This document shows, in pieces, positions 638 to 27,708 of a stretch of 27,708 nucleotides of DNA (its first letter is position 1; every line of letters starts with the position of its first letter). Location: IMG/VR virus record IMGVR_UViG_3300020171_000109, positions 1 through 27,708 of that record; one strand, given 5' to 3'. The DNA comes from a virus. Under the pieces are notes generated by a model. The model was not told the DNA's origin. It was given only the letters and a program-made list of their open reading frames with translations, and did no database searches. The translations under genes and the position numbers were made by a program.

Positions 638-638
638 C

Positions 639-668
639 CCTCCTCGTATAAGGCGGAGGAAGAAGAAA
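639..668 (+). promoter_or_regulatory. Repeated RBS leader, copy 1 (CCTCC...GGAGG)
   Basis: CCTCC at 639-643 can pair with the Shine-Dalgarno core GGAGG at 655-659, just upstream of the ATG at 669. The 17-bp core at 650-666 (AAGGCGGAGGAAGAAGA) recurs exactly at 855-871 and 1530-1546, each time directly before a small gene. In this copy the anti-Shine-Dalgarno arm is complete, so the ribosome site could be hidden in a hairpin. Confidence 0.6.
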
Positions 669-830
669 ATGAAAACAGAAACATTTGAAATAGCGTATAA
701 ACGAGTTTTATTAGGTAAAGCCAGTAAAGCCGAATTGAAGGTTTTGATTAAATGGGCGGAGACCGAAATAAGCGAATGGGTAGCATTTTTAGAGGTATTG
801 CACCAGAAAAATAAAACTTATAGCGACTAA
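669..830 (+). CDS. Hypothetical small helical protein (53 aa)
   Basis: A 53-residue frame preceded at ideal distance by GGCGGAGGAAGAAG, the strongest ribosome-binding site type in this part of the window. The protein is charged and predicted helical, with Trp in the middle (KWAETEISEWVAF). No family is recognised. The shared leader ties it to the genes at 873 and 1551, suggesting the three are expressed in the same manner. Confidence 0.65.
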   Translation: MKTETFEIAYKRVLLGKASKAELKVLIKWAETEISEWVAFLEVLHQKNKTYSD

Positions 831-5808: not shown

Positions 5809-7116
5809 ATGGAAATTAAAATACCATATAAACCTCGCAAGTGGGCCAAAGAATTACACGAAGCCACAGAGCGCTGGATTATGTTGGTATTGCATCGCAG
5901 AGCAGGCAAAACAACAGCGGGGCTTAATCATTTGCAAAGAGACGCACTGAAAATACCAAAAAGCCAGTGGGCGTATATCGGCCCGACATACAAGCAATCT
6001 AAAAGAATTGCGTGGGATATTGCCATTACTATTTCGCAACCCATACCTGAAGTGATACAAAATGTTTCTGAATTGACTATAATTTATCCAAACGGTTCAA
6101 AACTTATTTTAGTTGGTTCTGATAACCCGGACGCCTTAAGAGGAATGGGATTATGGGGAGCTTTCTTTGACGAGTATCCTTTACAGCCGAGCAATGTATT
6201 TTCAGAGATAGTTTCAAAATGTTTAGCCGATCACTTAGGCTATGCTATATTTGGAGGAACTCCGAAAGGGAAAGGAGAATTTTGGAGGATGTATAACAAC
6301 TCTAAAAATAATCCTGAATGGAGATTGATTTATAAAACAATAGAACACAGCTTAAAAGAAGAAACTGGAGAAACTATTGATAATTTGAGAAATGCTTTAG
6401 AAGGCGACAGAAGCCTTGTTCGGCAGGGCTTAATGACGGAAGACGAACTAAATCAGGAATGGTATTGTTCTTTTGAGGCGGCCATTAGAGGGGCTTATTA
6501 TGCCAAACAAATTTCAGAGGCCAGAGAACAAAAGAGATTACGGATTGTGCCTTACGATTCTGTTTTAAGGGTGCATACTGTTTGGGATTTAGGAATTGGA
6601 CAGGCGATGGGAATAGGTTTTTACCAACGCTCTGGGTTGGAAACCAGAATGATTGATTACTGGGAAGGATTAAATCAAGAAGGAATACCGCAAGCTATCC
6701 GGGCTATACAAAACAAGCCATATATTTACGGAAAACATTTTGCTCCACATGATATAAACGCAAAAGATATTGGCACAGGAAAGACCAGAAAAGAAACTGC
6801 AACAAGTTTGGGAATAAATTTTGAAGTGATACCAAGCCTGACAGTTGATGATGGAATCAATCGGGGAAAATTGATGTGGAATCATTTATGGATTGATGAA
6901 CAGAAATGCGAGGTTTGGCTTGATTATATTTCTCAATATAAGCAGGAATGGGACGATGATAAAAAGATGTTCAGGAATAAACCGGCGCACGATTTTACAA
7001 GCCACGCCGCAGATGTCCACAGATACGCGGCCATAGTTGAGGATCAAATGAAATCAGAAATAGATAAACCATATAAACAAAAACCTCACCAAAGTCTTTG
7101 GGAGGTGGAAGGGTAA
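5809..7116 (+). CDS. terL: Terminase large subunit (TerL)
   Basis: A 435-aa packaging motor. Walker A is at about residues 29-36 (HRRAGKTT), Walker B with catalytic acid at 117-122 (GAFFDE). The C-terminal nuclease shows VWDLG with D260, HD at 314-315, and HAADVHRY with D402 as the third acidic position. ATPase drives DNA into the prohead and the RNase H-like nuclease cuts concatemers. Length matches common phage terminases. It sits between terS and a 69-aa gene, followed after a non-coding gap by portal. Confidence 0.95.
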   Translation: MEIKIPYKPRKWAKELHEATERWIMLVLHRRAGKTTAGLNHLQRDALKIPKSQWAYIGPTYKQSKRIAWDIAITISQPIPEVIQNVSELTIIYPNGSKLILVGSDNPDALRGMGLWGAFFDEYPLQPSNVFSEIVSKCLADHLGYAIFGGTPKGKGEFWRMYNNSKNNPEWRLIYKTIEHSLKEETGETIDNLRNALEGDRSLVRQGLMTEDELNQEWYCSFEAAIRGAYYAKQISEAREQKRLRIVPYDSVLRVHTVWDLGIGQAMGIGFYQRSGLETRMIDYWEGLNQEGIPQAIRAIQNKPYIYGKHFAPHDINAKDIGTGKTRKETATSLGINFEVIPSLTVDDGINRGKLMWNHLWIDEQKCEVWLDYISQYKQEWDDDKKMFRNKPAHDFTSHAADVHRYAAIVEDQMKSEIDKPYKQKPHQSLWEVEG

Positions 7117-7648: not shown

Positions 7649-8104
7649 ATGCCAATAGGAGTTTATCAACATAAAAGAGGAGTTTATCATCACTCTGCCA
7701 AAACCAAAAGAAAAATAGGCGGAGCAAATAAAAGAAATTATCTTTTAGGAAAACACAACCCTTCAAGATACTGGCTCGGAAAGGAAAGACCAGATATGGT
7801 GGACAATAAATTTGCGCAAGGAATACCATCTTGGAATAAAGGTATTTTTGGAAAAAGAAAAAACTGGAAACAAGCAAAAGAATGGTACCACAACTTACAC
7901 AACTGGATTAGAAATACGAAAGGCAAGGCAAGTAAATGTGAATTTTGCGGGAAAGAAGGAACTGGAAGAGGAATGCACTGGGCGAATGTTGACCATAAGT
8001 ATAGTAGAGTTTTAGAGGATTATATTTCATTATGTCAAAGTTGTCATCGTAAATATGATATTAAAAATAATTTTGTAAAATGCCAAGCCCAGAAACACTA
8101 TTAA
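7649..8104 (+). CDS. HNH homing-type endonuclease (151 aa), terL-portal gap
   Basis: N-terminal half has short DNA-binding repeats of the NUMOD type (KTKRKIGGANKRNYLLGKHNP). The nuclease shows C97-x2-C100, VDHKY with H116, and C129-x2-C132-H133 (SCHRKYD). The C-terminal HNH domain closely resembles that of the minus-strand gene at 22594. Its last 25 bases are the first 25 bases of portal in another frame, so the C-terminus (KCQAQKHY) is built from portal codons. Likely a free-standing mobile enzyme that cuts phage lacking it. Confidence 0.8.
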   Translation: MPIGVYQHKRGVYHHSAKTKRKIGGANKRNYLLGKHNPSRYWLGKERPDMVDNKFAQGIPSWNKGIFGKRKNWKQAKEWYHNLHNWIRNTKGKASKCEFCGKEGTGRGMHWANVDHKYSRVLEDYISLCQSCHRKYDIKNNFVKCQAQKHY

Positions 8105-10071
8105 AGATTGCCGTAAAACAATACCAGTGTAGTTTTGAGTTCAAACGTCAACGTGTTGATGATATTCGCAAGAACGAAGCATATTATATCGGCCGAAAAG
8201 TAAAAGCGCCGATAGGAAGATTCGCAGTTTCTCTGCCGACAATGTCCGGGTTTGTTGACCACATGATGTCAAAGATAGACGATGCTCCGTCTTTGAATTT
8301 TGGTTATAGAGATATTGCAGATAAAAGATTGGCTGAAAAAGTAACCTCGGCTTGGGCTGTTGACAGCCACCCGAACAAAGCTAACTGGGCGCTAAAAGAC
8401 AGATGGGCCAAAAAGACAGGATTATTTTCAGGCCGGGCTATTTATAAAATCTATTCAGAATCAGACCCGGAGTATAAACATAATTTAGACGTGGTTGAAT
8501 TTGAGGACTTTATGTTTGAACCGATGGGAGGAGGTAATTTGGAAAACCATTTATTCTGCGGACACGACAATTTATTTAGAACCAAGGCAACTTTAATGCG
8601 CGGAGCCGAAGCTGGCATTTATGATAAGAATCAAGTATTGAAGCTTTTTAATAATCTTTCAAGCGATACAGAAAAAAAGGCAGAGGATATTTATAAATCA
8701 AAAGCCGAACGCTTATCAAAACTTGGATTGAGTTTGACCAACAACGAATATGTCGGACAGTCGGTGATCAAATTGGTTGAGTGGTATATGGAATATGAGG
8801 GCGAGAGATATAAACTGTTATTTGAATGGTTTACCCAGACTTGGGTTAGTTGCCACAAGCTAAAAGATGTCTTTGAAAGCAATTTATGGCCTTTTACAAC
8901 TTGGGCGACCAATGAGGACCCGTTTAACTTCGCCTCCAAAGCACCCTGCGACGATATGAGGCCAGTTGCTGAGGCGATTGATATAATCTTCAACCAGGCC
9001 TTAGATAACCGCTACAAGCGCAATTTTGGACAAAGGGCATACGATTCAAGTATCTTTCCTAACCCCGAAGAGTTGGAGTGGCGACCGGACGGACTGGTGC
9101 ATGCTACCGCAATTAAAAAGGGAGTAAATATCCAACAAGGAATTTATACTTTTGAAACGCCAGAAATCACCGGAAGCATTGACCTGATAAACTTTATGGA
9201 TATTTATACCGGTAAGAAGCTGGGTTCACTTCAACAAGAAGGTGGCGCGCAAGACGCGGCAGACCAAAAAGTAGGCATTTACTTTGGCCAGCTTCAACAA
9301 ATGGCTGACTTGATTGGATTAAAGAATAAATCTTACAGAGAATCACACTTAGGTTTGGGGTTGAGATATGCTTGGGGTCTGAAAGAACACTTGAAAGAGC
9401 CGATGCTGGTAAAAATGATTGGAGAGAACGGAGTTGAATGGGAAGAACTGACAAGGGGCGAAGCACAGAAGTCGCCGGATTTAGACCTTGATATTACAGG
9501 AGGTTCAGCGGAAGTTATGGCAAACGAAGCTAAAGCAAGAAGGAAGGCCGAAGGAGTAGCCTTGATTATGAAAAGCCAAACATTGATGAGCCAAGTAAAT
9601 CCTCAATGGCTTTTAGCGGAAGTATTAAGCCCTGCTTGGGATCCTGCCGAAGCAAGGTTGGCTATGTCAAAAGACCCTGGAAATTTAGACCAGATTTCAA
9701 GAGCTTCTGAAGCAATACAGCAAATTTTAAAAGGTAAGAAGCCAAAACTAATGAGAACGGCTAACACGGCATTTATGCAATACATTTTGGACTTTGCTAT
9801 GGATCACGAAGATTTAGAGGACAACGAATTTAACGCTTTAATGGCCTATATTGACGCTCACAAGAGGTATGCAGTTGAGAATACTATGCGACAAGCACAG
9901 AATATAAAGATACAGCAAAAGGAAAATATGGCAAGGAGTATGCTCAATGTTTCTGAAAACGTGAAGATACCGGAGAGGAATGCAGGATCGCCTCTTAATC
10001 CTGGCATATCGGGAAATAAGGCAACGGCTTTGATGACCGGTCGGGCTAATCCGGCTGAAATGGCAGTTTAA
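8080..10071 (+). CDS. Portal protein (663 aa)
   Basis: A 663-residue protein in the portal slot, after terL and before scaffold and capsid. Length fits the larger portals of short-tailed phages. Features include a long central region with LVEWYMEYEGERYKLLFEW, the RPVAEAIDIIFNQALDN helical part, and a C-terminal helical barrel-like tail (about 560-650). Portals form the dodecameric ring for DNA entry and join the tail. No single motif proves it; position, size and overall pattern do. The start at 8080 is shared with the end of the HNH gene. Confidence 0.85.
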   Translation: MPSPETLLKIAVKQYQCSFEFKRQRVDDIRKNEAYYIGRKVKAPIGRFAVSLPTMSGFVDHMMSKIDDAPSLNFGYRDIADKRLAEKVTSAWAVDSHPNKANWALKDRWAKKTGLFSGRAIYKIYSESDPEYKHNLDVVEFEDFMFEPMGGGNLENHLFCGHDNLFRTKATLMRGAEAGIYDKNQVLKLFNNLSSDTEKKAEDIYKSKAERLSKLGLSLTNNEYVGQSVIKLVEWYMEYEGERYKLLFEWFTQTWVSCHKLKDVFESNLWPFTTWATNEDPFNFASKAPCDDMRPVAEAIDIIFNQALDNRYKRNFGQRAYDSSIFPNPEELEWRPDGLVHATAIKKGVNIQQGIYTFETPEITGSIDLINFMDIYTGKKLGSLQQEGGAQDAADQKVGIYFGQLQQMADLIGLKNKSYRESHLGLGLRYAWGLKEHLKEPMLVKMIGENGVEWEELTRGEAQKSPDLDLDITGGSAEVMANEAKARRKAEGVALIMKSQTLMSQVNPQWLLAEVLSPAWDPAEARLAMSKDPGNLDQISRASEAIQQILKGKKPKLMRTANTAFMQYILDFAMDHEDLEDNEFNALMAYIDAHKRYAVENTMRQAQNIKIQQKENMARSMLNVSENVKIPERNAGSPLNPGISGNKATALMTGRANPAEMAV

Positions 10072-12901: not shown

Positions 12902-14146
12902 ATGAGTGATACAAACACACTAACAGACTCTTTTCCAACCTATCATTCCAAGAGAATGCAGGTCAAAAGAGGAAAGCTCACCATCTACAAGGATATTTGC
13001 TCCTTTGAAGAAAGGGCAACCCTTGTAAAAGGTGCAGCAGTAAAAAGACCATATCGTTCTGCTTTGGTAGTCAAAGCTTTGGGCGATGATGGCGCTTACA
13101 TAAGACAAGCATTGACAGACACTGCGGAGACTTTAACAGTCAACCAGGAACCTTCAATTGCCGCTTATGTAACAGATTCAGACGCAATCCAGTCCAACTA
13201 CAAGACAATGAATCATTACTCGGACGACGCAATGAAGAGAATTGACGAATTTGTGGACGGAGATGTATTAGGCGAATACGCAAGCGCTTCTTCAATCGTA
13301 GCCAACTACGAAATGGGAGGCGGAGGTTCTGCTTCTGACGGAATCGGCTTTACTTTGACAACCTCAAATGTAATGCAGGTTTTCGGAAAGGCAAACAAAA
13401 AGATAGACAGAAAGCACGTTGCAAGAAAAGACCGCTGGGCAGTTATTTCCCCGGAGTTTTTTGATATTCTTTGGCAATTTATTGGAGGCAAAGAATCGGC
13501 TCTTGGAGATAAAGTCGGCACAAACCCGAACGAAATCGGAGTTTACGGCGGATTCCGTTTGTTTGTTTCAGAACAAACAGGTTGGTCTGCAAGGTTGGAA
13601 TTTGCCACAAATCCAACAGCCAACGATACAATAACTATCAATGGCGCAGTATTTACTTGGAAAGCTGACACTATTACCACAGCAGGTTATATCCATATTT
13701 GTTCAACTGCGGCACTTTCGTTAGACCAACTTGTGTCTGCAATTAACACACCTGGAACAAGTGTAACCGAAGCAACAGATGCTGGGTTTTATGCTCTTAG
13801 CACGGCTAATCAAAACGCATTATCTGGCATTGTAGCCACAGATGGCACAACCTATATGACTTTGAAAGGAGAGGGTTATGGATTTATCGCAGTTTCTGAA
13901 GGATTATCAGCAGCAGCCGACATTTGGACTACCACAAAACAGTTGCAACACAACTTGTTTGGTCAAGGTAAGCCAATTGATTTGGTCATGCAAAAAGTTC
14001 CAAAAATTCAACTTAAAGACAGGTCTGACGCATCTTACGGATACACAGGTCAGGACTTTGTTGTTTGGGGCTTATACGGCTTGAAGACGTTTGCCGAAGG
14101 CGCGGATGCCTTGGTTGACGTTCAAATTCGTTCAGACGCATTTTAA
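12902..14146 (+). CDS. Major capsid protein with inserted domain (414 aa)
   Basis: Position after scaffold and overall pattern (N-arm, helix-rich P-domain-like region, C-terminal strands with GYTGQDFVVWGLYG) support an HK97-fold capsid protein. Residues about 228-352 look like an insertion: strand-rich with ANDTITINGAVFTW and a Thr/Ser/Ala-rich continuation, a pattern used in phage surface add-on domains, while both flanks read as capsid. It likely projects from the shell. Exact domain edges cannot be fixed by eye. A 5-base-spaced ATG with A/T-rich leader begins it. Confidence 0.8.
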   Translation: MSDTNTLTDSFPTYHSKRMQVKRGKLTIYKDICSFEERATLVKGAAVKRPYRSALVVKALGDDGAYIRQALTDTAETLTVNQEPSIAAYVTDSDAIQSNYKTMNHYSDDAMKRIDEFVDGDVLGEYASASSIVANYEMGGGGSASDGIGFTLTTSNVMQVFGKANKKIDRKHVARKDRWAVISPEFFDILWQFIGGKESALGDKVGTNPNEIGVYGGFRLFVSEQTGWSARLEFATNPTANDTITINGAVFTWKADTITTAGYIHICSTAALSLDQLVSAINTPGTSVTEATDAGFYALSTANQNALSGIVATDGTTYMTLKGEGYGFIAVSEGLSAAADIWTTTKQLQHNLFGQGKPIDLVMQKVPKIQLKDRSDASYGYTGQDFVVWGLYGLKTFAEGADALVDVQIRSDAF

Positions 14147-14931: not shown

Positions 14932-15738
14932 ATGAATCTTGAACCAGGAACAAAATTCGTTATCCCTTATCAGTTGAACGATCCGGCTGACACCAATACT
15001 TATTATTGCCGAGCCTATATTAGAAAGGCGGTTGGCGATGATTTGATTGCTACTGTTAATTTGGAAGACAAGGGAGATGGCAGATTTCTTGGAGAATGGT
15101 ATGTTCCTCAATACAACGTGCCAACGCAGATTATTATAACCACAAAAGTTTTTACCGATGCCGGATATACAACAGAAAGTCTGCTTTTTTGGAGGGCAAA
15201 CGAAAGCCATATAATACAGCAGAGCTGGTCGCCAGTTTTCGGCGGAGGCGGAGGAAGCGATATAAGCTACAAGAAAATTGAGGAAATTTTAAGGAAAATT
15301 ATCAAAGACGAGGTAAAGTACCCTTCAGCCGAAAAGATTGACTGGCAGCCTGTTTTTAGCGAAATCCAAAGGGTTATAAGGGCGGTTGAGGATAAAAAGA
15401 TGCCCGAGTTTCCTAAGATTGAGTTTCCGAAGCAAGAGAAAACAGATTTCGCGCCGATTATAAAAGAGTTGGAAAAATTAGGAAATTTAGTTGGGAAAAT
15501 TGAAAACTTTGATTCCAGTCCGATAGTTTCTTATTTGCACGATATTGAAAAAGAAATCTTGAAAAAAACAGAATTTGAAGAATTAAAAAAAGTTGTTGCA
15601 CTAATTCCTGAAACGATTGACGGCTATAACACAAAAAAATCCGAAGACAATAGACCATTGCCGGTTAAACCAAAAAGGAAATTTAACTTAACATTTGAAA
15701 GAAAAGAAAAAAACAATAAAAGGGCATTTGTATTTTAA
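14932..15738 (+). CDS. Beta domain plus helical tail protein, fibre-associated (268 aa)
   Basis: Residues 1-100 form a strand-rich domain of immunoglobulin-like size (FVIPYQLND, FLGEWYVP, IIITTKVFTD). A GGGGG linker at about 104-108 leads to a long charged helical region with repeats of PKIEFPKQE type, ending in a basic tail. Its stop overlaps the start of the fibre gene (15738), so they are probably made together. It may be an adaptor or chaperone for the fibre; this is inference. Confidence 0.6.
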   Translation: MNLEPGTKFVIPYQLNDPADTNTYYCRAYIRKAVGDDLIATVNLEDKGDGRFLGEWYVPQYNVPTQIIITTKVFTDAGYTTESLLFWRANESHIIQQSWSPVFGGGGGSDISYKKIEEILRKIIKDEVKYPSAEKIDWQPVFSEIQRVIRAVEDKKMPEFPKIEFPKQEKTDFAPIIKELEKLGNLVGKIENFDSSPIVSYLHDIEKEILKKTEFEELKKVVALIPETIDGYNTKKSEDNRPLPVKPKRKFNLTFERKEKNNKRAFVF

Positions 15739-18479
15739 TGCAAAATATTTACAAAAAAATAATTATACTTTCAGCCATACTGCTTTCTCTCGCAGGGTTT
15801 TATTTTATAGGAAATCAGCCACAAAGTTTTGGTATAACTATTCCGAAATTAGATTTATTTTATTTAGATGGTTCTGATATGAAACCGCGTGGGAGTTGGG
15901 ACTTGAATATGGGTTTGGGTGATGTAACGGCCACAGAGTTTTATGGTTCCGGGACCAGTTTAACCGGAGTATTACATTCTTATTCTGAAACCGACCCACT
16001 CTCTTTGCACCTTAATCAGGCTACTCCACAGACAATAATAAATGGAATACCTATATTTGATTCTGGACTTACAAGTAATGGGGTAATACGATTAACTCCA
16101 AATGGAACTGGAAATATAATTTTTAACGATACAAGTACAAACATTACTGCGGTTTTCAAAACTGACGACCAGGCAACTACTGATATAACTGGAAATGGTA
16201 TGATTTTTTCTGCTGGAAAAGGAAATGGAATTGGGGCAGGAGGTTCAATGATATTTTATGCTGGTCACGGAGGAAATGATGGAATGGGAGGAGATTTTAA
16301 TTTTTATGGAGGGAATGCTGGAACAGATAGCGATAACGATAGCAGGGGAGGTGCTTTAAGTATATATGGAGGTTCTGGAAATCAAGATGGTGATGGAGGA
16401 GAAATAAATATTTTTGCTGGTGATGGGGGAGAAGGTGGTTCAGATACTGGAGGAAATGTTTATATACAGGGCGGTTATGGGACTACTTTGGGAAAAGTTT
16501 ATATATCAGACCCAAGTTCGGGGAAAAGTGCTATTTTAGATACTTCCTTACTTGCTACATCAGACAAAACCTTCACCTTCCCCAACCTATCAGGAACGCT
16601 TGCTCTTACGAATGACACAACTACTTGGTGGTCTGCAGCCACCGCCCAAACAGGTCTCACAGGCGATAAGACAGGGACGTTTAATCTTACCACCACAGGT
16701 ACTCTCGGAGCAGGGGCGATAACAGGGACTATCGGCAGATTTACCACAGGAATATACGACAATGCAGCAACGCCACTCCTTGCCATAGGATTAGCAAGTA
16801 GATATTTATATGATGATAGTGGTTCAAATGTATCTATAAATTGGAATGACAGGATATTATACGCTACAGGTGGTGATAAGATACTTGACTGGGGGGCTAT
16901 TTCTGGTCGTGCTGATTTTGATGATACCAATATTCTTACTTCTGGTACTCTTGGAGCAGGGGTGGGGACTTTAAGTGGCGGCAATGGGAACGCAACTTTT
17001 GCTTTGCTTAATCTAAATAACACCGCTAATCCTGCTACTGGCAATACTGCACAAACTTCTGACTCAGTTTTTAATTTAATGGGAACTATCAACAGTGGTT
17101 CCACTTTCTCATCACACGAAGCAGCAAAGATTAGTGCTTACAAAGTTTCTGACTGGTGGCACGCCTCTGCAGAAGCAGACCACGATTCAGGATTAAAGTT
17201 TTACACTACCAGCAATGGAACACCAACCTTGCAATTGACTATTGACGATGTTGGCCTTGCGACTTTCGTTGGGAACATTACCAGCGACAGCCCAGCGACA
17301 TTTGCGAACATAACTATTGGTTCTGGTTCTATAACCGAAGGTTTTGGAGATACCATATCGTTTGGAGACGAAAATATCACCACCGGAGGCAGAGGGACAT
17401 TTAGAAAATTAAGTTGCACAGATTGCTCTACGGCCGGAGACCGCGGCGTAGCATTGGGATTTGGGTCATCAGCAAGTGCCGACTACGGCACAGCAATGGG
17501 AGCCAGTACAGTAGCCAGCGGAGTCTATAGTACAGCAATGGGAGCAAACACAATAGCAAGTGCCGACTACAGCACAGCGATGGGTTATGGTTCCCAGGCA
17601 AATGCAATGTATAGCACGGCAATGGGATTTTACACAACTGGTAGCGGGGATTATGCTATCGCCATGGGACAGAGTACAATAGCAAGCGGGGACGCCAGCA
17701 CAGCAATGGGCAGTGGCACAACAGCAAGCGGGGGTGCCAGCACGGCAATGGGAAGTAGCACAACAGCAAGTGGAAGCTACAGCACAGCGATGGGTGCTTT
17801 CACAGTAGCGAGTGGAAATTTCAGCATAGCAATGGGAGGTGCGGTCCCTATGGCAACAACAGCAAGTGGACATTGGAGTACAGCAATAGGTTATCAACTA
17901 ACAGCAAGTGGAAATTGGAGTTTTGCCCTTGGTAAGAGTTTTACAAACGATATTGCAAGCAGTTTTGCAGTTGGTTTTGGTCAAAAAGACTTTGCCGTAT
18001 CAGCAGGGTTAATTGATATTTATGGGTTAATAAATACCTATAACAGCATTGCTACTGTAAGCAATGGTGTTCCTTCTGAATTAGCGAAAGTTGATCTTAC
18101 GGGACAGACAGCGGCAAAGTCAGCGACAACTATTTACACACCTACCACAAGTGGAATGTTCCGTATATCAATTTCCTTACAGGTTACAACTGCGGCAACG
18201 ACTTCTTCAGTTTTAGGCGGGGCGACAGGAATTACTATAACTTATACCGAGCCAGACGGGTCGGTGGCACAAAGTATTAAACCTTTACTTACAAGCGAAG
18301 CAGGTGCGGTTATAATTCCAGCGACAGGAAATATAGGGAATGCTACTACTACTCAATCGCAAGGTTCAGCAATTATTTATGCAAAAACGGGCGTGGCGAT
18401 ACAATATGCAATTGGATATACGAGTGTGGGGGCAACTGCAATGCAGTATTCTGCCCACCTAAAAGTAGAAGCATTATAA
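15738..18479 (+). CDS. Large tail fibre or spike with YadA-head-type repeats (913 aa)
   Basis: N-terminal hydrophobic segment (about residues 6-26), then a typical fibre start (GDVTATEFYGSGTSLTG). Residues about 155-255 are Gly-rich with repeating GG-x-hydrophobic units, likely a beta solenoid. Residues about 566-735 contain tandem 15-aa units with S-x-A-x-G and TAMG(A/S/Y) pattern, as in YadA head and other trimeric surface adhesins. The C-terminal 150 residues form a strand-rich knob (TTSGMFRISISLQVTT). It would bind the host surface. The hydrophobic N-terminus is atypical for a phage fibre. Confidence 0.8.
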   Translation: MQNIYKKIIILSAILLSLAGFYFIGNQPQSFGITIPKLDLFYLDGSDMKPRGSWDLNMGLGDVTATEFYGSGTSLTGVLHSYSETDPLSLHLNQATPQTIINGIPIFDSGLTSNGVIRLTPNGTGNIIFNDTSTNITAVFKTDDQATTDITGNGMIFSAGKGNGIGAGGSMIFYAGHGGNDGMGGDFNFYGGNAGTDSDNDSRGGALSIYGGSGNQDGDGGEINIFAGDGGEGGSDTGGNVYIQGGYGTTLGKVYISDPSSGKSAILDTSLLATSDKTFTFPNLSGTLALTNDTTTWWSAATAQTGLTGDKTGTFNLTTTGTLGAGAITGTIGRFTTGIYDNAATPLLAIGLASRYLYDDSGSNVSINWNDRILYATGGDKILDWGAISGRADFDDTNILTSGTLGAGVGTLSGGNGNATFALLNLNNTANPATGNTAQTSDSVFNLMGTINSGSTFSSHEAAKISAYKVSDWWHASAEADHDSGLKFYTTSNGTPTLQLTIDDVGLATFVGNITSDSPATFANITIGSGSITEGFGDTISFGDENITTGGRGTFRKLSCTDCSTAGDRGVALGFGSSASADYGTAMGASTVASGVYSTAMGANTIASADYSTAMGYGSQANAMYSTAMGFYTTGSGDYAIAMGQSTIASGDASTAMGSGTTASGGASTAMGSSTTASGSYSTAMGAFTVASGNFSIAMGGAVPMATTASGHWSTAIGYQLTASGNWSFALGKSFTNDIASSFAVGFGQKDFAVSAGLIDIYGLINTYNSIATVSNGVPSELAKVDLTGQTAAKSATTIYTPTTSGMFRISISLQVTTAATTSSVLGGATGITITYTEPDGSVAQSIKPLLTSEAGAVIIPATGNIGNATTTQSQGSAIIYAKTGVAIQYAIGYTSVGATAMQYSAHLKVEAL
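17460..17935 (+). repeat. Tandem repeats of about 45 bp inside the fibre gene
   Basis: Degenerate tandem units with core TACAGCAATGGGA and AGCAAGTGGA, encoding 14-16-aa units (ASG-x-STAMG). About ten units are visible. Repeat number probably varies by recombination. Confidence 0.7.
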
Positions 18480-19542: not shown

Positions 19543-20355
19543 ATGCAAAACAAAATAAACAAATATGGCCTAAGGCCATTAAAAAAGGATATAAGGGATT
19601 TTAAATTAAGCGGTGTTTTCGCGCGGTTTGATTTAAGTAAGTTGCCGGATGAATTTGTAGTTGGCCAATCTGAAATACTGGATCAACAAGAAACTGATTA
19701 TTGCACCGCTTTTTCAACCTGCGCCGCTTCTGCTATTCAGGAAAACAAAACCCTTAATCCTTATTGGAGTTTCGCAGTTTCAAAAAAGATTTCAGGGGAT
19801 GTTGATGCATGGGGACAGGATTTAAGAACGGCCATAAGGGTTCATACGGAATACGGAGCTATTGAAAATATGATTAACCTCGGCAGAGATATTGTAAATT
19901 ATCCTATTTTATACAAGGAAGCAGAAGGACATAAAAAGCAAAGTTATTTTTCTGTTGATGGGCCATACGACCATTTTGATAATTGCCGAGTAGCTTTGTA
20001 TCAAAACCAAGACAAAAAGAGGTTTATTATTACTGGTTGTTTATGGAGAACAAGCTGGACTGGAGCCGATAAAGGAATAATACCGGAGCAATATGAAAAG
20101 AATGGATTTGGACACGCTTTTGTTTTTGCGGGTTGGGTAAAATTTGGCGATAAAACATATTTAAAAGCCCAACTTTCAAACGGGCAAGATATAGGGTTAA
20201 ATGGAAATTTCTTTTTTAGCCGCGAGATAGTGAATAAAGAATTTAAATTTGGGTCTTTCCTTTTTGTTGATTTAGACCCGGAAAACATAAAAAAACAACA
20301 ATGGAATTTTTGGATAAAATTATTAAACTTTATTAAAAATTTATGGCGGAAATAA
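19543..20355 (+). CDS. Papain-like cysteine protease (270 aa)
   Basis: Family C1-like catalytic set: Q48/Q49 in ILDQQ for the oxyanion hole, C54 in TDYCTAFS, H191 in GHAFVFAG, and N213 in LSNGQDIGLNGNFFF, which parallels the papain NSWG...G-Y-F ending. The order and spacing are correct. There is no signal peptide; a short propeptide-like start is possible. It lies with tail genes and overlaps the next gene by 13 bases. It could process virion proteins, act as an injected host-directed protease or cut peptide links. Fold call is good; role is inference. Confidence 0.8.
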   Translation: MQNKINKYGLRPLKKDIRDFKLSGVFARFDLSKLPDEFVVGQSEILDQQETDYCTAFSTCAASAIQENKTLNPYWSFAVSKKISGDVDAWGQDLRTAIRVHTEYGAIENMINLGRDIVNYPILYKEAEGHKKQSYFSVDGPYDHFDNCRVALYQNQDKKRFIITGCLWRTSWTGADKGIIPEQYEKNGFGHAFVFAGWVKFGDKTYLKAQLSNGQDIGLNGNFFFSREIVNKEFKFGSFLFVDLDPENIKKQQWNFWIKLLNFIKNLWRK

Positions 20356-21032
20356 ATACAACTACGCAAATCTGCGCGTTCTTTGAGGAGCTTGTTGGAG
20401 AATCTGTGGATGAGACCACAAAATTAAATTTAGCTGAACATGCAAAAGATTTAATTGAGGGCGACAGACCCTGGGCTTTTCTGATAAAAGAAGATGCCAC
20501 AAAAACATTCGGAACAAGCGATAATTATTTAACCGCCAAAGCCCTGCCGAGCGATTTTGAAAGCGATTATAAAGTTTATTTGGGAGATGCCACACTGAAA
20601 GATTTTTACGAATATCATGCTGTGCCATTTCATTTGAGGAGAAGATTTAACGACAGCTCTTACACTTATTACATAGATTACGCAAACAGCAATTTATACA
20701 TTTGCGGTTCAACTGCCAAGCAATACACAATTTACCTTTACTATATTTATAAAACCCCGGCGCTTGCCTTAACACTATCTGACCCTGTATGGCCTGCTAA
20801 ATTTAGAAAACTGATAGCTTTTATTATGGCGAAAGTGTGGAGAAGCGGAATTGACTTTGATGAGATAACTTCAAAACAAGCGGTTTCGGATAATTCTGAA
20901 GCCAAAGCACTTTTAGAAGCCATGGAATCGTGGGATGACAAAATAAAACTTCGCCAGCTAAATAATAGAACCGGCTTTGCGAGTGATAAAAATTCATTTA
21001 GCGAATCTGGCAGAGTAAATTTTAACGACTAA
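20343..21032 (+). CDS. Head-tail adaptor, tail-tubular-A-like (229 aa)
   Basis: Helical N-terminus (QICAFFEELVG, NLAEHAKDLIEGDRPWAFL), a strand-rich middle (YYIDYANSNLYICG, TIYLYYIYK) and helical end (KFRKLIAFIMAKVW). This matches the pattern of connector/adaptor proteins below the portal in podoviruses. It is followed with a one-base gap by the nozzle-like gene, the expected order for tail-tubular A then B. Similarity is by pattern, not by a motif. Confidence 0.65.
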   Translation: MAEINTTTQICAFFEELVGESVDETTKLNLAEHAKDLIEGDRPWAFLIKEDATKTFGTSDNYLTAKALPSDFESDYKVYLGDATLKDFYEYHAVPFHLRRRFNDSSYTYYIDYANSNLYICGSTAKQYTIYLYYIYKTPALALTLSDPVWPAKFRKLIAFIMAKVWRSGIDFDEITSKQAVSDNSEAKALLEAMESWDDKIKLRQLNNRTGFASDKNSFSESGRVNFND

Positions 21033-21033: not shown

Positions 21034-22614
21034 ATGCCAAGAACAAAAACAATTAACAACTTCGCCTTCGGACAGATAGATACCCTGGAGCCTCAATCGC
21101 TTCCCAGAGGTGCTGTTTCGCGCGGACTTAACTTTCTAACACAAGCAGACAGAATAGAACTTCGCCTTGGCTATAAAGTTTATGGCAACAAAGATTCCTC
21201 TACTGGTAAGATTACAGGCTATATTGTGGCAAAAACCGCCGCTGGGGTTGAATGGCAATATAGAACTCACGGACAGAAACTTGAATATTATGTTTCGGCT
21301 ACAGATACTTGGACTGAAATTGGAACTAACATTTTAGGAGCCTCGGCAGACGGCAAGGATATTTCTTTTGCAGAATGGCACCCGATCGCAGGAGACTTTG
21401 TTTATCTTAATTCTCCTTACGGGCCATTCCTAAAAATTGATTTGGCAACGCCTGATACCGCGAATGATGTTTATAACGCGGCTACAAACTATAAGGGCTA
21501 CATAAAAATAGCTGAAAACAGAATGTGGCTTTGGCAAAGAACTGGTGATCCGACTGGTGTGTATATTTCAAAAATAAACGACCCGGTAGATTTTACTTAT
21601 TCTGCTACGCGAGTTGCAGGGGAGGGTAATATTTTCAGGCAGGACGATGGTGGCCCAACACAGAAAATTGATACCTACGGAACGAAACATTTCTGCTTTC
21701 ATAAAACTAAGACTTGGGTTTTGGAATTGACCGCAGATGATACAAACGCCACTAACCAGATTTATAGGGACAGGGTTGGAATTTCAAGCCCCAGAGGTTC
21801 TGTTTCTACCGGAGACGGAATTTATTATATTGATGATGTTGACCAAAAAGACCCTCAAATACGACTTCTGGCTATAAGTGAAAGCAACGCGGAAATCATC
21901 CCATATTCTATTTCAAAAAATATATTATTTGAGAAAAAACGAGTTGGAATTGATTTATCTGATTACCTTTTTGATAAGGCCTGCGGAGAAGAATGGAACG
22001 ATTATATTTTATTCGCCTGCCGGACTTCTGATTCTACGCAAAATAACCGAGTGCTTGCCTACCACAAGAAACTAAAATCCATTGATATTTTAAATTATTG
22101 GGTAACAGTATTTCAGATTTTGTCCGGGACTTTGACCGGCGGAGATCCAGTGCAAAATAACATTATACAAATGTTTACGGAAACTTCTGACGATTCTTCT
22201 GTGATAGAAAATTATGTTGAGCTTAATAAAGATAATTTAGATTTTGCAGGGGAAAAGAAACTGAAAAAATTGAGAGTTTGGGGCAGAATTGGAAACGAAC
22301 AGCAGATTAAGGTTTATGCCAAACTGGATAACAACGCTGATTTTGTGGAATTGGGAACTATAAGCGGAAGTGCTTTGGCGGCGGCTGATGAGGTTATGAT
22401 TGGTAGCCGGACAGTAGGACTAACGACTGTGGGAGGTGAGTCATCAGGAGAGGACTGGAGCGAGTTCGTTTCGGAAATAAATATTACACTTGGGCGGTTT
22501 AATTATATCGTTTTACGCTTTGAAGCATTAGCTCTTGGCACTGCAAATATAAGTCGCATTGATTACTTCGACATAAGATTAAAGAGTAGCCGTTTAAGCT
22601 CTAACCTTGTATAA
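21034..22614 (+). CDS. Tail nozzle, tail-tubular-B-like (526 aa)
   Basis: Starts with the typical NNFAFGQ-x-DT...LPRGAVSRGLNF pattern of podovirus tail-tubular B / phage stabilisation proteins. The rest is a long strand-rich body with Trp/Gly turns (GVEWQYRTHGQKLEYYVS, NRMWLWQRTGD, TGDGIYYIDDVDQ) that reads like a beta-propeller. It would form the tip of the short tail. The last 21 bases overlap the minus-strand HNH gene. Confidence 0.75.
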   Translation: MPRTKTINNFAFGQIDTLEPQSLPRGAVSRGLNFLTQADRIELRLGYKVYGNKDSSTGKITGYIVAKTAAGVEWQYRTHGQKLEYYVSATDTWTEIGTNILGASADGKDISFAEWHPIAGDFVYLNSPYGPFLKIDLATPDTANDVYNAATNYKGYIKIAENRMWLWQRTGDPTGVYISKINDPVDFTYSATRVAGEGNIFRQDDGGPTQKIDTYGTKHFCFHKTKTWVLELTADDTNATNQIYRDRVGISSPRGSVSTGDGIYYIDDVDQKDPQIRLLAISESNAEIIPYSISKNILFEKKRVGIDLSDYLFDKACGEEWNDYILFACRTSDSTQNNRVLAYHKKLKSIDILNYWVTVFQILSGTLTGGDPVQNNIIQMFTETSDDSSVIENYVELNKDNLDFAGEKKLKKLRVWGRIGNEQQIKVYAKLDNNADFVELGTISGSALAAADEVMIGSRTVGLTTVGGESSGEDWSEFVSEINITLGRFNYIVLRFEALALGTANISRIDYFDIRLKSSRLSSNLV

Positions 22615-23049
22615 ATTATTTTTAAAATCATAATTTCTATGACACCTAACACATCTTTCAACATAATCATCAAGATTTCTACGATATTTATGGTCTATAT
22701 TAGACCAGTGTTTTGCAGGTTTTCCACAATCTATGCAAATTTGCGGTTTTCCTTTATGAGCTTTTACCCACGAATGAATCGGAGCATATCCAGCATCTTC
22801 GCCTTTCCATTTCGGATGTTTTTTACCCATATTTTGCCCTTTTTTAAAAGATGTTTTGTTCGGCTTTATTACTCCAATAGTATTTCTATTCCACGCAGGA
22901 GTGCCAACCCGACCTATCCAATAACATTTATAAGAACAATATTTTCTTATTTTCCAAGATGGAGCGATAAAAACTTTATTGCAAATTTTACACTTAAAAG
23001 AAGCCCTTGGCTTTCCAATGAATTGTCCCTTTGAATTTCTTATAATCAT
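22594..23049 (-). CDS. HNH endonuclease on the minus strand (151 aa)
   Basis: The only convincing minus-strand gene. ATG at 23049 is chosen over an upstream TTG. N-terminal zinc finger-like C20-x2-C23 and C38-x3-C42 (YCSYKCYW), then a basic linker, then HNH: C105-x2-C108, D119-H120 in NIDHKY, C133-x2-C136-H137 (CHRNYD). The C-terminal half clearly parallels the HNH gene at 7649 (DHKY, DY, C-x2-CHR-YD-KNN). It fills the gap between nozzle and fibre genes and overlaps the nozzle end. Probable mobile homing gene. Confidence 0.8.
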   Translation of the reverse strand: MIIRNSKGQFIGKPRASFKCKICNKVFIAPSWKIRKYCSYKCYWIGRVGTPAWNRNTIGVIKPNKTSFKKGQNMGKKHPKWKGEDAGYAPIHSWVKAHKGKPQICIDCGKPAKHWSNIDHKYRRNLDDYVERCVRCHRNYDFKNNLYKVRA

Positions 23050-23148: not shown

Positions 23149-24507
23149 ATGATACAAGAATTTTTATCAAGTATAGCATCAAAGATAATCACCGGCATTG
23201 TCGGAGTCGGTTTGATTATAGGTGGGTTTTTCGGAATGAATCAGGTAGAACAAAAATTTTCTGCCGTCGTCCCGACCGTAATCGCCAGCTTTTCTACCAC
23301 CTTGGCTGCGGAAATTACCTCTACGGCAACTACGATGACCCTAACCTCCGGCACGACAGATGACAGCACAACCCTTAATGGAACTTATGGCTTTGTTATA
23401 GATTCCGGTGTTAGTGGAAAAGAGGAATTTGTCTTGGCTTCTTGTACTGACACCGCTTGTACTTCAATGACGCGCGGAGTTTCTTCAATAACAGGCAACA
23501 CCGCAGTAACTGCTCTAAAACACGCCCACTCGCGCGGAGCCTCTGTTAAGATTTCAGACCACCCACAACTTGCGATTATTTCAAGGATTATAAACGCAGA
23601 CGAAACATTCCCTAACGGCGCTACTTTTGGAGGTAATGTAAGTATTACAGGGACAGTTTCAACAACCTCACTGGCGACTTTTGGTGGCAAGGCAACTTAC
23701 AAAAACACTGAAACGATAAATGACGATAAAGATTTGGCAAGCAAGGCGTATGTGGATTCTGCCGCCGCATCTGGCGCGCCAAATATGTCTTTGACAGCCA
23801 AAGGTATAGGTGAGGAGGCCACCGCCGCAGAAATTAACGCAGGAACGCAAACAGGTTCAACTTCTGCTGAATTGATAGTAAATCCAAAATACTTAAAAGA
23901 TGCTATTTATTACACCCAACTTCCGACTTCTGACGAGAAAGCGGCTTTAGCCGGAACTGGAACACCATCATCGGGAAATAAATACTGCACAGCAGACTAT
24001 CCAATTCCTATCTCTTACTTAGACACAACTACAACCCTCGGAACATCTGATACAAAAGTGCCTTCTCAAAAAGCAGTTAAGACTTATGTAGATGCTACTC
24101 CGCCCTCTTCAACAAACGGAGTTATCACAAGAGCAGGAAATGCGGGTGCAGGCGCAGTTACTACGGCTCACGGATTAGGAAGAACTCCAAAAATGGTAAG
24201 AGTGTCTGCAATATATTTACCGTCTACTCATTTTGCGCCTGCTTGGTCAACAGGTTCATATAATGGAACTACAAATGCTTGTAATTTTTATACAGCATCA
24301 GTTCAAACAGCTTTAGTAACTTATGATGCGGTAGGAGGTTCAACCACTTATGCAATTTATGTTTCTGTTGCTAATGCGGCTGGAACTTACGCACAGCGAG
24401 GAGTAATAACGGTTGACGCAACTAATATAACAATAACTTGGTCTCTTCCCGCAGGAGGAGCATTGCCAGATACAAATGATATACAAATATCTTGGGAAGC
24501 AAATTGA
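23149..24507 (+). CDS. Tail fibre with N-terminal membrane segment (452 aa)
   Basis: Hydrophobic segment at about residues 10-29 (IASKIITGIVGVGLIIGGFFG), then Ser/Thr-rich strands. ATFGGNVSITGTVSTTSLATFGG and the SDTKVPSQKAVKTYVD pattern are common in phage and bacterial fibre stems. The C-terminal part (GRTPKMVRVSAIY, TNITITWSLPAGG) resembles fibre tip domains. Similar stretches of ATF(G)GN(I/V) occur in the 913-aa fibre. Binding to the host surface is likely; the anchor-like N-terminus is unusual. Confidence 0.7.
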   Translation: MIQEFLSSIASKIITGIVGVGLIIGGFFGMNQVEQKFSAVVPTVIASFSTTLAAEITSTATTMTLTSGTTDDSTTLNGTYGFVIDSGVSGKEEFVLASCTDTACTSMTRGVSSITGNTAVTALKHAHSRGASVKISDHPQLAIISRIINADETFPNGATFGGNVSITGTVSTTSLATFGGKATYKNTETINDDKDLASKAYVDSAAASGAPNMSLTAKGIGEEATAAEINAGTQTGSTSAELIVNPKYLKDAIYYTQLPTSDEKAALAGTGTPSSGNKYCTADYPIPISYLDTTTTLGTSDTKVPSQKAVKTYVDATPPSSTNGVITRAGNAGAGAVTTAHGLGRTPKMVRVSAIYLPSTHFAPAWSTGSYNGTTNACNFYTASVQTALVTYDAVGGSTTYAIYVSVANAAGTYAQRGVITVDATNITITWSLPAGGALPDTNDIQISWEAN

Positions 24508-24549: not shown

Positions 24550-25881
24550 ATGCCAACCTACAACACAGAGACAAGGTATGATTCTAATGGTCAACCATAT
24601 CAAGTCAGAATAGCAAGTAAAACTCCAAATGAACTGGCGCAGGAGAGAGCTGATGCTGCCGGGCAGAAACCTGTTGAGGCAGGAAAAGCAAATCCTAATT
24701 ATAAGGATTGGTCTTTGCCTGAAAATGGGGGAAGCGGAGCGCCGCCCGGAACAACTGCCATAGCAGAACGCCCGGGCTATGCACAAGAAGCCGCTAACGC
24801 AGCGAACGCGCTTGATATTGATTTTACGCAGGATGAGGAAGCGGCGGCGAGGGAAGAAGTGAGAAGGCAAAAACAAGCCCAAGTGGATGCTATAAATAAG
24901 ATTTATGATGAAATGCTAACGGAAGAGCAACAGACCGGAGTAGAAAGAAGCGGCAGAAGCAAGGCCATAGCAAGCAGAGCAGGGATTTTAGAAACCCCGA
25001 TGGGTTCGGCCCAACTAACAAAAACAGAGCAATTTAACGCCCAGCAACAGAAATTATTGCAGGCGGAAAGAGAAGCCAAAATTGTTGCCATAGAGGACAA
25101 AATGAACACCCGATTGGATGAAAAGATTAAAGCCGAAAGGGAGTTGGCCGGTAAAAATTACGACAAATATCAGGATTTTTTGAAGGAACAGGCGACAGAA
25201 GGCGAAAATGACCTTGTTGGTATAGCCAAGTCTGGCACACAAACCCTTGATATGTTTAAGACAAGCGATTTTTATAAGCAAATAAAGCAGGAAACTGGTT
25301 TTTCAGATATGAAGCTGGACTATCTTTTTAACGCAAATTTACCGAAAGAATGGCAGTTTAATGAATTATTTAAAACGCAATACAAGGGCGAGAACGGAAA
25401 TCAATGGCTTAAAAAGATAGTGATAGATCCTGCAACAGGACAGCAGAAAGAGTTGAATTACGACTTGGGAGTTCCTTTTAAAGAGACGGAAGAAATAAAA
25501 GAAGTTGAAGGAATGCCATATAAAGTCATAAAAGACGCGGAAGGAAAGGTTGTAAGGTATGAGGCGATACCGGGGATTGTGAAGAAACCGAAAGCAGAGG
25601 ATATAGTTACCTCCGGTGGATTAAAAATATCCAAATCAGAAGTCGGAGAATTGGGTAAAACATTGAAACAAAATGCTGGGTCTGATGGATATGTTAATAC
25701 CGCTGAATATTTACAGGGACTAAAAAACTGGATTGATCTTAATGGGCTTGCAAAAGATTATTACGCTAACTTTTTACCAAAAGATTATCTAAACCCGGCT
25801 GATCCGACTATTCCACAGAATATAAAAAACCTGTTAAAATATGACGAGGTTCAGGCTCTTATTAACGCATTAGGAGGATAA
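24550..25881 (+). CDS. Internal virion or ejection protein candidate (443 aa)
   Basis: Soluble, highly helical and charged (AAREEVRRQKQAQVDAINKIYDEML, LTKTEQFNAQQQKLLQAEREAKI), with a Pro/Gly-rich start. This is like short-tailed phage internal proteins that assemble inside the head and are ejected with the DNA. It lies right before the very large internal protein. The last codons (LGG stop) contain the GGAGG used by the next gene. No enzymatic motif seen. Confidence 0.6.
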   Translation: MPTYNTETRYDSNGQPYQVRIASKTPNELAQERADAAGQKPVEAGKANPNYKDWSLPENGGSGAPPGTTAIAERPGYAQEAANAANALDIDFTQDEEAAAREEVRRQKQAQVDAINKIYDEMLTEEQQTGVERSGRSKAIASRAGILETPMGSAQLTKTEQFNAQQQKLLQAEREAKIVAIEDKMNTRLDEKIKAERELAGKNYDKYQDFLKEQATEGENDLVGIAKSGTQTLDMFKTSDFYKQIKQETGFSDMKLDYLFNANLPKEWQFNELFKTQYKGENGNQWLKKIVIDPATGQQKELNYDLGVPFKETEEIKEVEGMPYKVIKDAEGKVVRYEAIPGIVKKPKAEDIVTSGGLKISKSEVGELGKTLKQNAGSDGYVNTAEYLQGLKNWIDLNGLAKDYYANFLPKDYLNPADPTIPQNIKNLLKYDEVQALINALGG

Positions 25882-25885: not shown

Positions 25886-27708
25886 ATGACTGAAAACCCA
25901 TTATTAAAAGGAATAGGTGGCAGACCATCTACTCCAACCGATTCCTATAAATCTGATAATCCTCTATTAAAAGGACTTTCTTCGGTTGCAAAACCAGCAG
26001 GAGTTGTGGAAGAAAAACCGAAACAACTTTCAGATTATTTTAAAGAGCAAGGAATGAGACAGCAGGGATGGTTTGAATTGGAAAAGGCAGGAAAACTTAC
26101 GCCCGAATTAAAGAAATTAGAGGAATCTGGTTTCGCTCCACCAGGATCAGCGAAACCAGATATAGGTTCTGAAGGAATAGTCAAAAACTTAACAAACAGC
26201 ATAACCCTTGGGGTGAACAGTTTATTTAATCAAGGGAAAAATTATTTTACATCAACTCTTCCACAACAAATAGCTGGCTTCGTTAAAGAAAACACAAAGT
26301 CATTAAGACAAGTTTCGGGATATACCCCAGAACAAGAAACTAAAATCCAAGAAGCAGAAAACAAATTAACCGCAGAAGCGCAGGATAAATACAAAAAAAA
26401 TAACGAAAGATTTGATAAATGGCTTGTAGAGCATCCTGAACTACAACCAAAAAAAGAATGGAAGGAGGGAGTAAGTAAAAACCCATCTATCTTAAAAGAT
26501 CCTGATTATTGGGCATATACAATAGGATCTGCTATCCCCTATCTTGTCGGCGTAATGGGGACTACGGCATCTGTAACGGCAGTAACTAAAAACCCTATAT
26601 TGGGAATTTCTGCCGGTATGGCAGTTGCGACACCAGTTGTAACTCAAGATTTATACGATGATTTAGTTGAGAACGGGGCAACAAATGAACAGGCACTTAA
26701 TCTATCTGGTAAAATAGGACCTGTTATTTCTGCTGTTGAGGTGCTTTCTGATATTCCTATATTAAAAAGTTTAGGACTTTCTACTTTATTAACTAAAGAG
26801 ATACAAAAGGAAGCAGTCAAAGAGGTTGTAAAATTATCTACTAAAAAAGCCGTAATCGGTGGGGCAAAGAAGTTTATTACTGTTGAACTCGCAGAAACAG
26901 TAGAAGAGGTTGTCCAACAGACCATACAAAACGCCACAGTAAAGGTAGTAAATAACAATAGGAGTTTATTTGAAAATTTATCTGAAACTGCGATACAATC
27001 TGCAATCTCTGTTTTGCCATTAGGGATATTTGGAGGCGCAATGGATATAAGAAATATAGGTCGTCCGACAGTTCAAGGACAAACAGAACCGATGATTGGA
27101 GGAATAAAGACTGAAGAAAAACCACCGGAGGAGATAGTTAATCCACTCTTAAAAGGAATCAAGATTGCAGAGAAAACGAAGCCGGAGCAGACTGATATAG
27201 CAAGTAAAATCACCGAGAACATAAGAGGTTATCAGTCTTTTGGTGGAGTCGGAGTTGGAACTGAAAGCCCTAACGCCTATTTACGAGATTTAAACACCCA
27301 ATTAAACACACCAGAAGGGGCTACAATAGGCAAAAAGAGCGTAGATGACGCAATAGCCAGAGGGGAGATAAAAGTTGACTCAGATGGGCAAATTACTCTT
27401 TACAGGGTGGGTGAGGTTTCAGATAAGAACCCTCTTGTTTCCGCTACATACGACAAATCATTTGCCGAGAGTTTTGACCGCACCGGAAAAGCCAAAATTA
27501 CCGAAATAAAAGTAAAGCCCGAAGATATAAAATACAATATCGGAGGAGTTGAAAAGGAGGTTTTAATACCGAAAGAAATTGCAAAGCCAGAAATTGAAAG
27601 CCCCCTCGCCCAAGAAACCATAAAAAAAGGAGATAATGTAACTTTCAAATATACTAATTTAGGGGGCGAATCAGAAATTGTTAATGGGATAGTTGAAGAA
27701 CCTCCGAT
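25886..27708 (+). CDS. Very large internal protein with ADP-ribosyltransferase-like domain (partial)
   Basis: Open to the window end, at least 607 aa, no stop. N-terminal part has NPLLKG motifs at about residues 4-9, 25-30 and again 419-424. A hydrophobic region at about 208-260 (YTIGSAIPYLVGVMG..., PILGISAGMAVATP) could span or insert into a membrane, as in ejected internal or polyvalent proteins. Residues about 500-565 show an ADP-ribosyltransferase layout: LYR (R507), SAT (S519, T521), and VEKEVL with E556-K-E558, after a strand-rich AKITEIKVKPEDIKY. The arrangement suggests a host-directed enzyme injected at infection. Downstream domains are unseen. Confidence 0.7.
   Translation, partial: MTENPLLKGIGGRPSTPTDSYKSDNPLLKGLSSVAKPAGVVEEKPKQLSDYFKEQGMRQQGWFELEKAGKLTPELKKLEESGFAPPGSAKPDIGSEGIVKNLTNSITLGVNSLFNQGKNYFTSTLPQQIAGFVKENTKSLRQVSGYTPEQETKIQEAENKLTAEAQDKYKKNNERFDKWLVEHPELQPKKEWKEGVSKNPSILKDPDYWAYTIGSAIPYLVGVMGTTASVTAVTKNPILGISAGMAVATPVVTQDLYDDLVENGATNEQALNLSGKIGPVISAVEVLSDIPILKSLGLSTLLTKEIQKEAVKEVVKLSTKKAVIGGAKKFITVELAETVEEVVQQTIQNATVKVVNNNRSLFENLSETAIQSAISVLPLGIFGGAMDIRNIGRPTVQGQTEPMIGGIKTEEKPPEEIVNPLLKGIKIAEKTKPEQTDIASKITENIRGYQSFGGVGVGTESPNAYLRDLNTQLNTPEGATIGKKSVDDAIARGEIKVDSDGQITLYRVGEVSDKNPLVSATYDKSFAESFDRTGKAKITEIKVKPEDIKYNIGGVEKEVLIPKEIAKPEIESPLAQETIKKGDNVTFKYTNLGGESEIVNGIVEEPP

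What the first reader, a model, noticed from the sequence alone, without database searches (positions are those of the whole stretch)
27380..27580. ADP-ribosyltransferase-like domain in a giant internal virion protein
R507 in LYR, S519-A-T521, and E556-K-E558 with typical strand context (KITEIKVKPEDIKY before the EKE) match the R-S-E type ART catalytic order. The protein is also a likely ejection protein. Phage T4 Alt is an ART that is injected and modifies host RNA polymerase; this could be an unrelated virus using the same strategy with a polyvalent internal protein. Seen: motif order. Known: R-S-E ART fold. Inferred: injection and target.
Basis: partly seen in the sequence, partly recalled or inferred. 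Interest (0 to 1): 0.75.

Follow-up and report, generated by a model that had tools for sequence, protein, structure and literature searches.

The report
T4-Mod-like ADP-ribosyltransferase in phage ejection protein
The end of this contig of a virus of bacteria encodes part of a giant protein, probably packed in the virus particle, that carries a small enzyme domain resembling phage T4's ModA/ModB, which suggests that an unrelated short-tailed phage also delivers a protein that chemically tags host molecules.

Summary
In detail: ORF 25886-27706 (+) has R507, S519-A-T521 and E556-K-E558. Motif order alone is weak evidence; it occurs in 5% of shuffled copies. Independent tests support the interpretation. 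Residues 441-569 form a real domain, 64% identical in one giant phage protein and 37% in another whose remaining sequence is unrelated; R, S-A-T and E-x-E are invariant. A three-sequence AlphaFold model (pLDDT 71) recovers mostly ADP-ribosyltransferases (ARTs) among PDB folds, chiefly the R-S-E clade, but at low Z (4.5 or less); a failed single-sequence model used as control recovers none. The spacing S-x-[ST]-x5-A-x2-F and E-x-E-x-[ML]-x-P matches T4 ModA/ModB exactly; profile comparison gives E 2e-4. The gene sits in the tail/ejection module of an SU10-portal-type podovirus. Relatives encode giant proteins (742-2338 aa) there; one carries ART-PolyVal plus RelA/SpoT, beside a transglycosylase gene. 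The contig end truncates the protein, so its full architecture is unknown. Activity, injection and target are inferred. Published polyvalent proteins carry H-Y-D ARTs, and Alt-type R-S-E ARTs were stated to be absent from them, so this looks like a new variant of a known kind.

The parts
25886..27706 (+). Giant (truncated) putative ejection/polyvalent protein, first 607 aa
   Evidence: Open frame to the contig end; syntenic with 742-2338 aa proteins in relatives
25872..25877 (+). Ribosome-binding site AGGAGG
   Evidence: Sequence
27206..27592 (+). R-S-E-type ART-like domain, residues 441-569
   Evidence: Conserved in L102 and L098/L104; AF2 model and fold comparison; profile match to the T4 Mod family
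27404..27406 (+). R507, predicted NAD-binding Arg (strand 1)
   Evidence: Invariant in three homologues; same motif as ModA R72 / ModB R73 (PMC10468400)
27440..27448 (+). S519-A520-T521, S-x-S/T motif (strand 2)
   Evidence: Invariant; aligned with the Mod family S-x-[ST] motif by hhalign
27551..27559 (+). E556-K557-E558, E-x-E motif with predicted catalytic E558
   Evidence: Both Glu invariant, middle residue varies; end-points of fold alignments
26513..27055 (+). Hydrophobic stretches (residues ~210-390) before the ART domain
   Evidence: Hydropathy peaks at residues 213-238, 275-284 and 368-370; no match to a known domain
25895..25912 (+). NPLLKG motif copy 1
   Evidence: shuffle test of copies 1-2
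25958..25975 (+). NPLLKG motif copy 2
   Evidence: shuffle test of copies 1-2
27140..27157 (+). NPLLKG motif copy 3
24550..25881 (+). Upstream tail/ejection-module gene (443 aa)
   Evidence: Synteny; homologue in L090 has an SLT transglycosylase domain
23149..24507 (+). Conserved tail/ejection-module gene (452 aa)
   Evidence: Synteny, 37-50% identity over about 240-290 aa in relatives
21034..22614 (+). Putative tail (nozzle-like) protein (526 aa)
   Evidence: Weak PHROG tail match E 0.0046; 38-49% identity in relatives
20343..21032 (+). Possible SU10-type adaptor protein
   Evidence: Pfam SU10_adaptor E 0.0012, below the curated cut-off
12902..14146 (+). Major capsid protein
   Evidence: phrog_267 E 2e-17
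8080..10071 (+). SU10-type portal protein
   Evidence: Pfam SU10_portal E 1e-8
5809..7116 (+). Terminase large subunit
   Evidence: Pfam Terminase_6N E 1.5e-8, phrog_2 E 6e-31

Best explanation
The 3' end of the window encodes a minimal R-S-E-type ADP-ribosyltransferase (residues ~441-569), most like the T4 ModA/ModB enzymes, carried as a movable module in a giant protein of a podovirus tail/ejection operon. Most likely mechanism: the giant protein is packed in the virion with the other ejection proteins, enters the host ahead of or with the DNA, and the ART domain uses NAD+ (R507 and S519 binding NAD, E558 catalytic, E556 aiding transfer to the acceptor) to modify host macromolecules early in infection. 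Shown here by sequence: domain conservation and sharing of the module, the conserved residue set, and the gene's place in the structural module. Supported by prediction: the ART fold. Inferred: activity, virion location, injection, substrate.
For: Homologous domain with invariant R, S-A-T and E-x-E in L102 (64% over 153 aa) and L098/L104 (37%), in giant proteins that do not otherwise align with it. AF2 on three sequences gives pLDDT 70.8, pTM 0.67; 46 of the 50 PDB entries listed by VIA-align are ART-superfamily by their titles and my knowledge, led by ExoS, Vis and C3bot, while the failed single-sequence model matches none. Alignment end-points put E558 within about one residue of C3bot E214 and ART2.2 E189, residues named in entry titles. 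hhalign against 10 Mod-family ARTs: E 1.9e-4, score 31.7 against at most 18.1 in 100 column shuffles; it rose from 28.6 when the Mod profile was deepened. Exact shared spacing with ModA/ModB. Synteny of the tail module and giant protein in relatives, one with ART-PolyVal plus RelA_SpoT and an SLT domain next door. The L104 giant protein's C-terminal part matches a DarB-like antirestriction protein.
Against: No match to any ART family in Pfam, NCBIfam or PDB by sequence. Fold Z-scores are low (4.5 or less) and Foldseek alone is not significant in PDB (best E 0.53). The profile match to Mod covers only 26 columns around the S-x-S motif. R-to-S spacing is short (12 residues against 24-26 in ModA/ModB). 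No direct evidence of virion location, and the 3' part of the gene is missing.
Confidence: 0.68

Rival explanations
1. A real R-S-E ART, but one that destroys or remodels NAD+/ADPr signals (NADase or small-molecule modification) as counter-defence, instead of tagging host proteins or RNA.
For: Some ARTs act as NADases or on small molecules (PMC9503650); the conserved residues do not fix the substrate.
Against: The E-x-E motif and the Mod-type segment fit transfer to macromolecules; PMC9503650 finds ARTs with NADase activity under-represented in viruses.
Confidence: 0.14
2. A degenerate or purely structural ART-like fold in an ejection protein: the domain serves folding or assembly and has no NAD-dependent activity.
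For: Short R-to-S spacing, low Z to known ARTs, no curated ART family recognises it.
Against: Catalytic-type residues are invariant while the residue inside E-x-E and the flanks vary; the module is absent from relatives' proteins at the same place, so it is not needed for assembly in general.
Confidence: 0.1
3. A real ART in a large late protein that is not injected, acting in the producing cell.
For: No proteomics; T4 ModA/ModB act inside the cell after being made there (my knowledge; PMC10468400).
Against: Gene is last in a tail/ejection module with conserved order, and relatives' counterparts look like ejection or polyvalent proteins.
Confidence: 0.05
4. Chance motif in an unrelated domain; no ART at all.
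For: The loose motif order occurs in 5% of shuffles; no sequence-based family hit.
Against: Conservation, fold matches that are almost all ARTs, and the profile match to Mod ARTs.
Confidence: 0.03

Closest known systems
Phage T4 ModA/ModB (Mod family, R-S-E ART clade)
   Same: R; S-x-[ST]-x5-A-x2-F; E-x-E-x-[ML]-x-P; profile match E 1.9e-4; a phage enzyme
   Different: Mod proteins are free ~200-aa enzymes with longer R-S (24-26) and S-E (69-74) spacing; here a minimal domain (12 and 39) inside a giant protein of the tail module
Phage T4 Alt (injected R-S-E ART)
   Same: Proposed strategy: an ART carried in the virion and delivered with DNA
   Different: Alt was not compared here; delivery is shown for Alt and only inferred here; a myovirus, not a short-tailed phage
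ART-PolyVal / Tox-ART-HYD2 of phage polyvalent proteins (PF18760; PMC5512222)
   Same: ART module in a giant phage protein with other domains; a sister phage (L090) has one at the same gene position
   Different: Those have an H-Y-D active site; this domain has R-S-E and gives no PF18760 match
MuF-fused Alt/VIP2 ARTs (PMC9503650)
   Same: R-S-E ART fused to a head protein and thought to be packaged
   Different: No MuF domain here; giant protein of a podovirus ejection module
DarB-like antirestriction / polyvalent proteins
   Same: The L104 homologue's C-terminal part matches a DarB-like protein of Serratia phage Parlo
   Different: That part is not present in the 607 aa of the window

Membership tests
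R-S-E clade ART | Arg on strand 1 | tested here: met
   R507 invariant in three homologues and on the predicted strand ITLYRV
R-S-E clade ART | S-x-S/T motif on strand 2 | tested here: met
   S-A-T invariant, on a predicted strand; aligned with the Mod motif by hhalign
R-S-E clade ART | E-x-E on a late strand | tested here: met
   E-K-E / E-S-E in all three, at the start of the last predicted strand
R-S-E clade ART | ART core fold with the three motifs lining one NAD cleft | tested here: inconclusive
   Moderate model (pLDDT 71); nearly all listed PDB matches are ARTs but Z 4.5 or less; coordinates could not be inspected
R-S-E clade ART | NAD-dependent activity | not testable with these tools
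   Needs biochemistry
T4 Mod family | Full-length sequence homology to ModA/ModB | tested here: inconclusive
   Profile match only over 26 columns, probability 47%, E 1.9e-4; spacing between motifs differs
ART-PolyVal (Tox-ART-HYD2) | H-Y-D active site and PF18760 profile | tested here: not met
   No PF18760 match at E 10; R-S-E residues instead
Phage polyvalent protein | Very large protein with several effector domains | tested here: inconclusive
   Only 607 aa available, one effector domain seen; relatives 742-2338 aa, one with ART-PolyVal and RelA_SpoT
Phage polyvalent protein | Encoded with virion structural genes | tested here: met
   Directly follows the portal, capsid, adaptor and tail genes; synteny in relatives
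Phage polyvalent protein | Packaged and delivered with the DNA | not testable with these tools
   Needs virion proteomics or a translocation assay
T4 Alt | Homology to Alt | not tested
   Only ModA/ModB and their homologues were compared

The most novel reading that the evidence does not exclude
R-S-E (Mod-type) ARTs are exchangeable cargo modules of podovirus ejection proteins, swapped between otherwise unrelated giant proteins, in a gene slot that in sister phages holds an H-Y-D-type ART and RelA/SpoT domains, so that short-tailed phages deliver host-tagging enzymes before their genome is expressed.
Probability: 0.4. Interest if true: 0.6.

Novelty: new variant of a known kind. Interest (0 to 1): 0.5.

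Why it matters
Virion-delivered ARTs are known from T4-like myoviruses, and ARTs were reported in only 3% of siphoviruses and podoviruses (PMC9503650). [quoted passage not shown] A Mod-like ART in a podovirus ejection protein would link the two themes and give a compact (~130 aa) domain for testing NAD-dependent protein or RNA tagging outside T4. The curated HMM libraries tried here miss it, so ARTs in short-tailed phages may be undercounted.

Tried and rejected
Pfam, NCBIfam, PHROGs and PDB sequence searches of the whole protein and of the domain found no ART family. tblastn of the protein and the domain in phages and plasmids gave only chance hits; the Enterococcus phage hit lies in what looks like a metallo-beta-lactamase-fold ORF. 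The search for related loci with the single protein found nothing; the degenerate DNA pattern for DGxITLYRxG found L098. Single-sequence AF2 gave pLDDT 40 and served only as a negative control. A profile search of 398 genomes of the phylum of the MAG that holds L104 found no further copy, and 50 related viral records had none, many of them fragments. The SHP-2 and triosephosphate isomerase hits in PDB are short chance matches. Giant proteins of relatives at the same place (L082, L083, L084, L100, L101) lack the signature, so the ART is not a fixed part of this gene. An alternative reading as a H-Y-D ART was rejected because strand 1 has R and strand 2 has S.

Full report
What is there. The window is a complete virus record of 27,708 bp. 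Its last ORF, 25886-27706 on the + strand, starts 8 nt after an AGGAGG and runs off the contig, leaving 607 aa of a longer protein. The order R, S-x-T, E-x-E alone is weak: 5.1% of shuffles of the same protein and 43 of 1020 ORFs show it.

The virus. The contig encodes a terminase (best database relatives are HTVC010P-type Pelagibacter podoviruses at about 40%), an SU10-type portal, a phrog_267 capsid and a weak SU10 adaptor match. It is therefore most likely a podovirus. Relatives were collected with terminase, portal and tail-protein queries. In G002, G005 and G006 the gene order 526-aa tail protein, 452-aa protein, 443-aa protein, giant protein is kept, and L090 has the same arrangement. 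At the place of the window's ORF the relatives have proteins of 1556, 742, 1066, 1462 and 2338 aa. In L090/L101 this protein has ART-PolyVal (E 2.5e-4) and RelA_SpoT (1.8e-5) matches, both below the curated cut-offs, and the neighbouring protein has an SLT transglycosylase domain above cut-off. These are features expected of ejection and polyvalent proteins (PMC5512222).

The domain. A degenerate DNA pattern for DGxITLYRxG found L098; an alignment then found L102 and the MAG contig L104, titled Clostridiaceae. The window's residues 418-570 are 64% identical to residues 240-388 of the 1427-aa L102 protein, and residues 441-589 are 37% identical to the 2129-aa L104 protein; nothing else in those proteins aligns significantly with the window protein. 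The conserved region is therefore a module shared between otherwise different giant proteins. R, S-A-T and both Glu of E-x-E are invariant. L104 also has a HEVGH metallopeptidase-like motif after the domain and a C-terminal part similar to a DarB-like antirestriction protein.

Is it an ART? Folding one sequence failed (pLDDT 40). Folding with the three homologues gave pLDDT 70.8 and pTM 0.67, with helices followed by strands carrying R507, S519-T521 and the E-x-E. Foldseek alone gave no significant PDB match, but VIA-align over 844 Foldseek candidates listed 50 entries of which, by title and my knowledge, 46 are ARTs or Tpt1/KptA, mostly R-S-E clade, at Z 2.3-4.5. The same procedure on the failed model listed three unrelated entries. 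The alignment end-points place E558 within about one residue of the catalytic Glu of C3bot (E214) and ART2.2 (E189); this assumes no gap in the last dozen residues, and I could not inspect coordinates. Among predicted viral structures the best match has E 7.7e-4, and others include podovirus giant proteins and an LPD38 protein.

Which ART? T4 ModA reads VVSASYDKNIALHF and EQEVMIP where the window reads LVSATYDKSFAESF and EKEVLIP. hhalign against ModA/ModB gave E 6.7e-4 and against ten Mod-family proteins E 1.9e-4, score 31.7, against a best of 18.1 in 100 column shuffles. The Mod-type signature is in 0 of 20,000 shuffles and only in these two groups among 1020 ORFs; it was defined after the fact. 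Mutation of R73 in ModB, the Arg of the same motif, abolishes activity (PMC10468400). Compared with Mod, the window's domain lacks about 30 residues between the S and E motifs and 12-14 between R and S.

Mechanism. The best reading is an NAD-dependent macromolecule-modifying domain carried into the host in an ejection protein, as Alt is in T4. The R-S-E residue set, module sharing and gene position rest on sequence. The fold is predicted. Activity, packaging, injection and substrate are inferred. The chief rivals are an NADase or small-molecule role, a non-catalytic ART fold, and an enzyme that is not injected.

Known or new. Polyvalent proteins with ARTs are published (PMC5512222), with H-Y-D active sites; [quoted passage not shown] The present case is best called a new variant of a known kind. 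Because the protein is truncated, I do not file it firmly as a polyvalent protein, and because the profile match to Mod is local, I say that it works like a Mod/Alt ART and not that it is a member of the Mod family.

Noticed in passing
window 25895-25912, 25958-25975, 27140-27157; giant proteins of L083, L094, L100: The window protein has three copies of NPLLKG[IL]. Some relatives have their own, different, repeated N-terminal motif (AFDFSTFG/SFDFASFG, PKTLKLSD/PGTLKLSD, MSYKPLFS/TKYQPLFS): 0, 0, 0 and 16 of 500 shuffles reach the score for window, L083, L094 and L100. Could be a packaging or ejection signal; L102, L084, L101 and L082 show none by this test and L104 is marginal.
   Followed up: partly
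L090 15543-21803; L101 851-7867: 2338-aa giant protein of a relative with ART-PolyVal and RelA_SpoT matches, at the same gene position.
   Followed up: partly
fold search of the ART model in BFVD: Many phage RIIB (lysis-inhibition) proteins appear with Foldseek probability up to about 0.85; RIIB may hold an ART-like fold. Weak and untested.
   Followed up: no
L104 5289-11678, residue 1123: HEVGH zincin-like motif between the ART module and the DarB-like C-terminal part, as in polyvalent proteins with self-processing peptidases.
   Followed up: no
window 17429-17933: 42-nt (14-aa) tandem repeats in the 913-aa ORF 15738-18479, matching YadA head repeats: likely a tail fibre.
   Followed up: no
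window 638-675, 843-880, 1518-1555: Three near-copies of a stretch with TAAGGCGGAGGAAGAAGA before small genes, possibly a shared translation or regulatory element.
   Followed up: no
window 22639-23034: 131-aa ORF whose homologues in L060 and L069 lie on the opposite strand to the structural genes and at another place.
   Followed up: no
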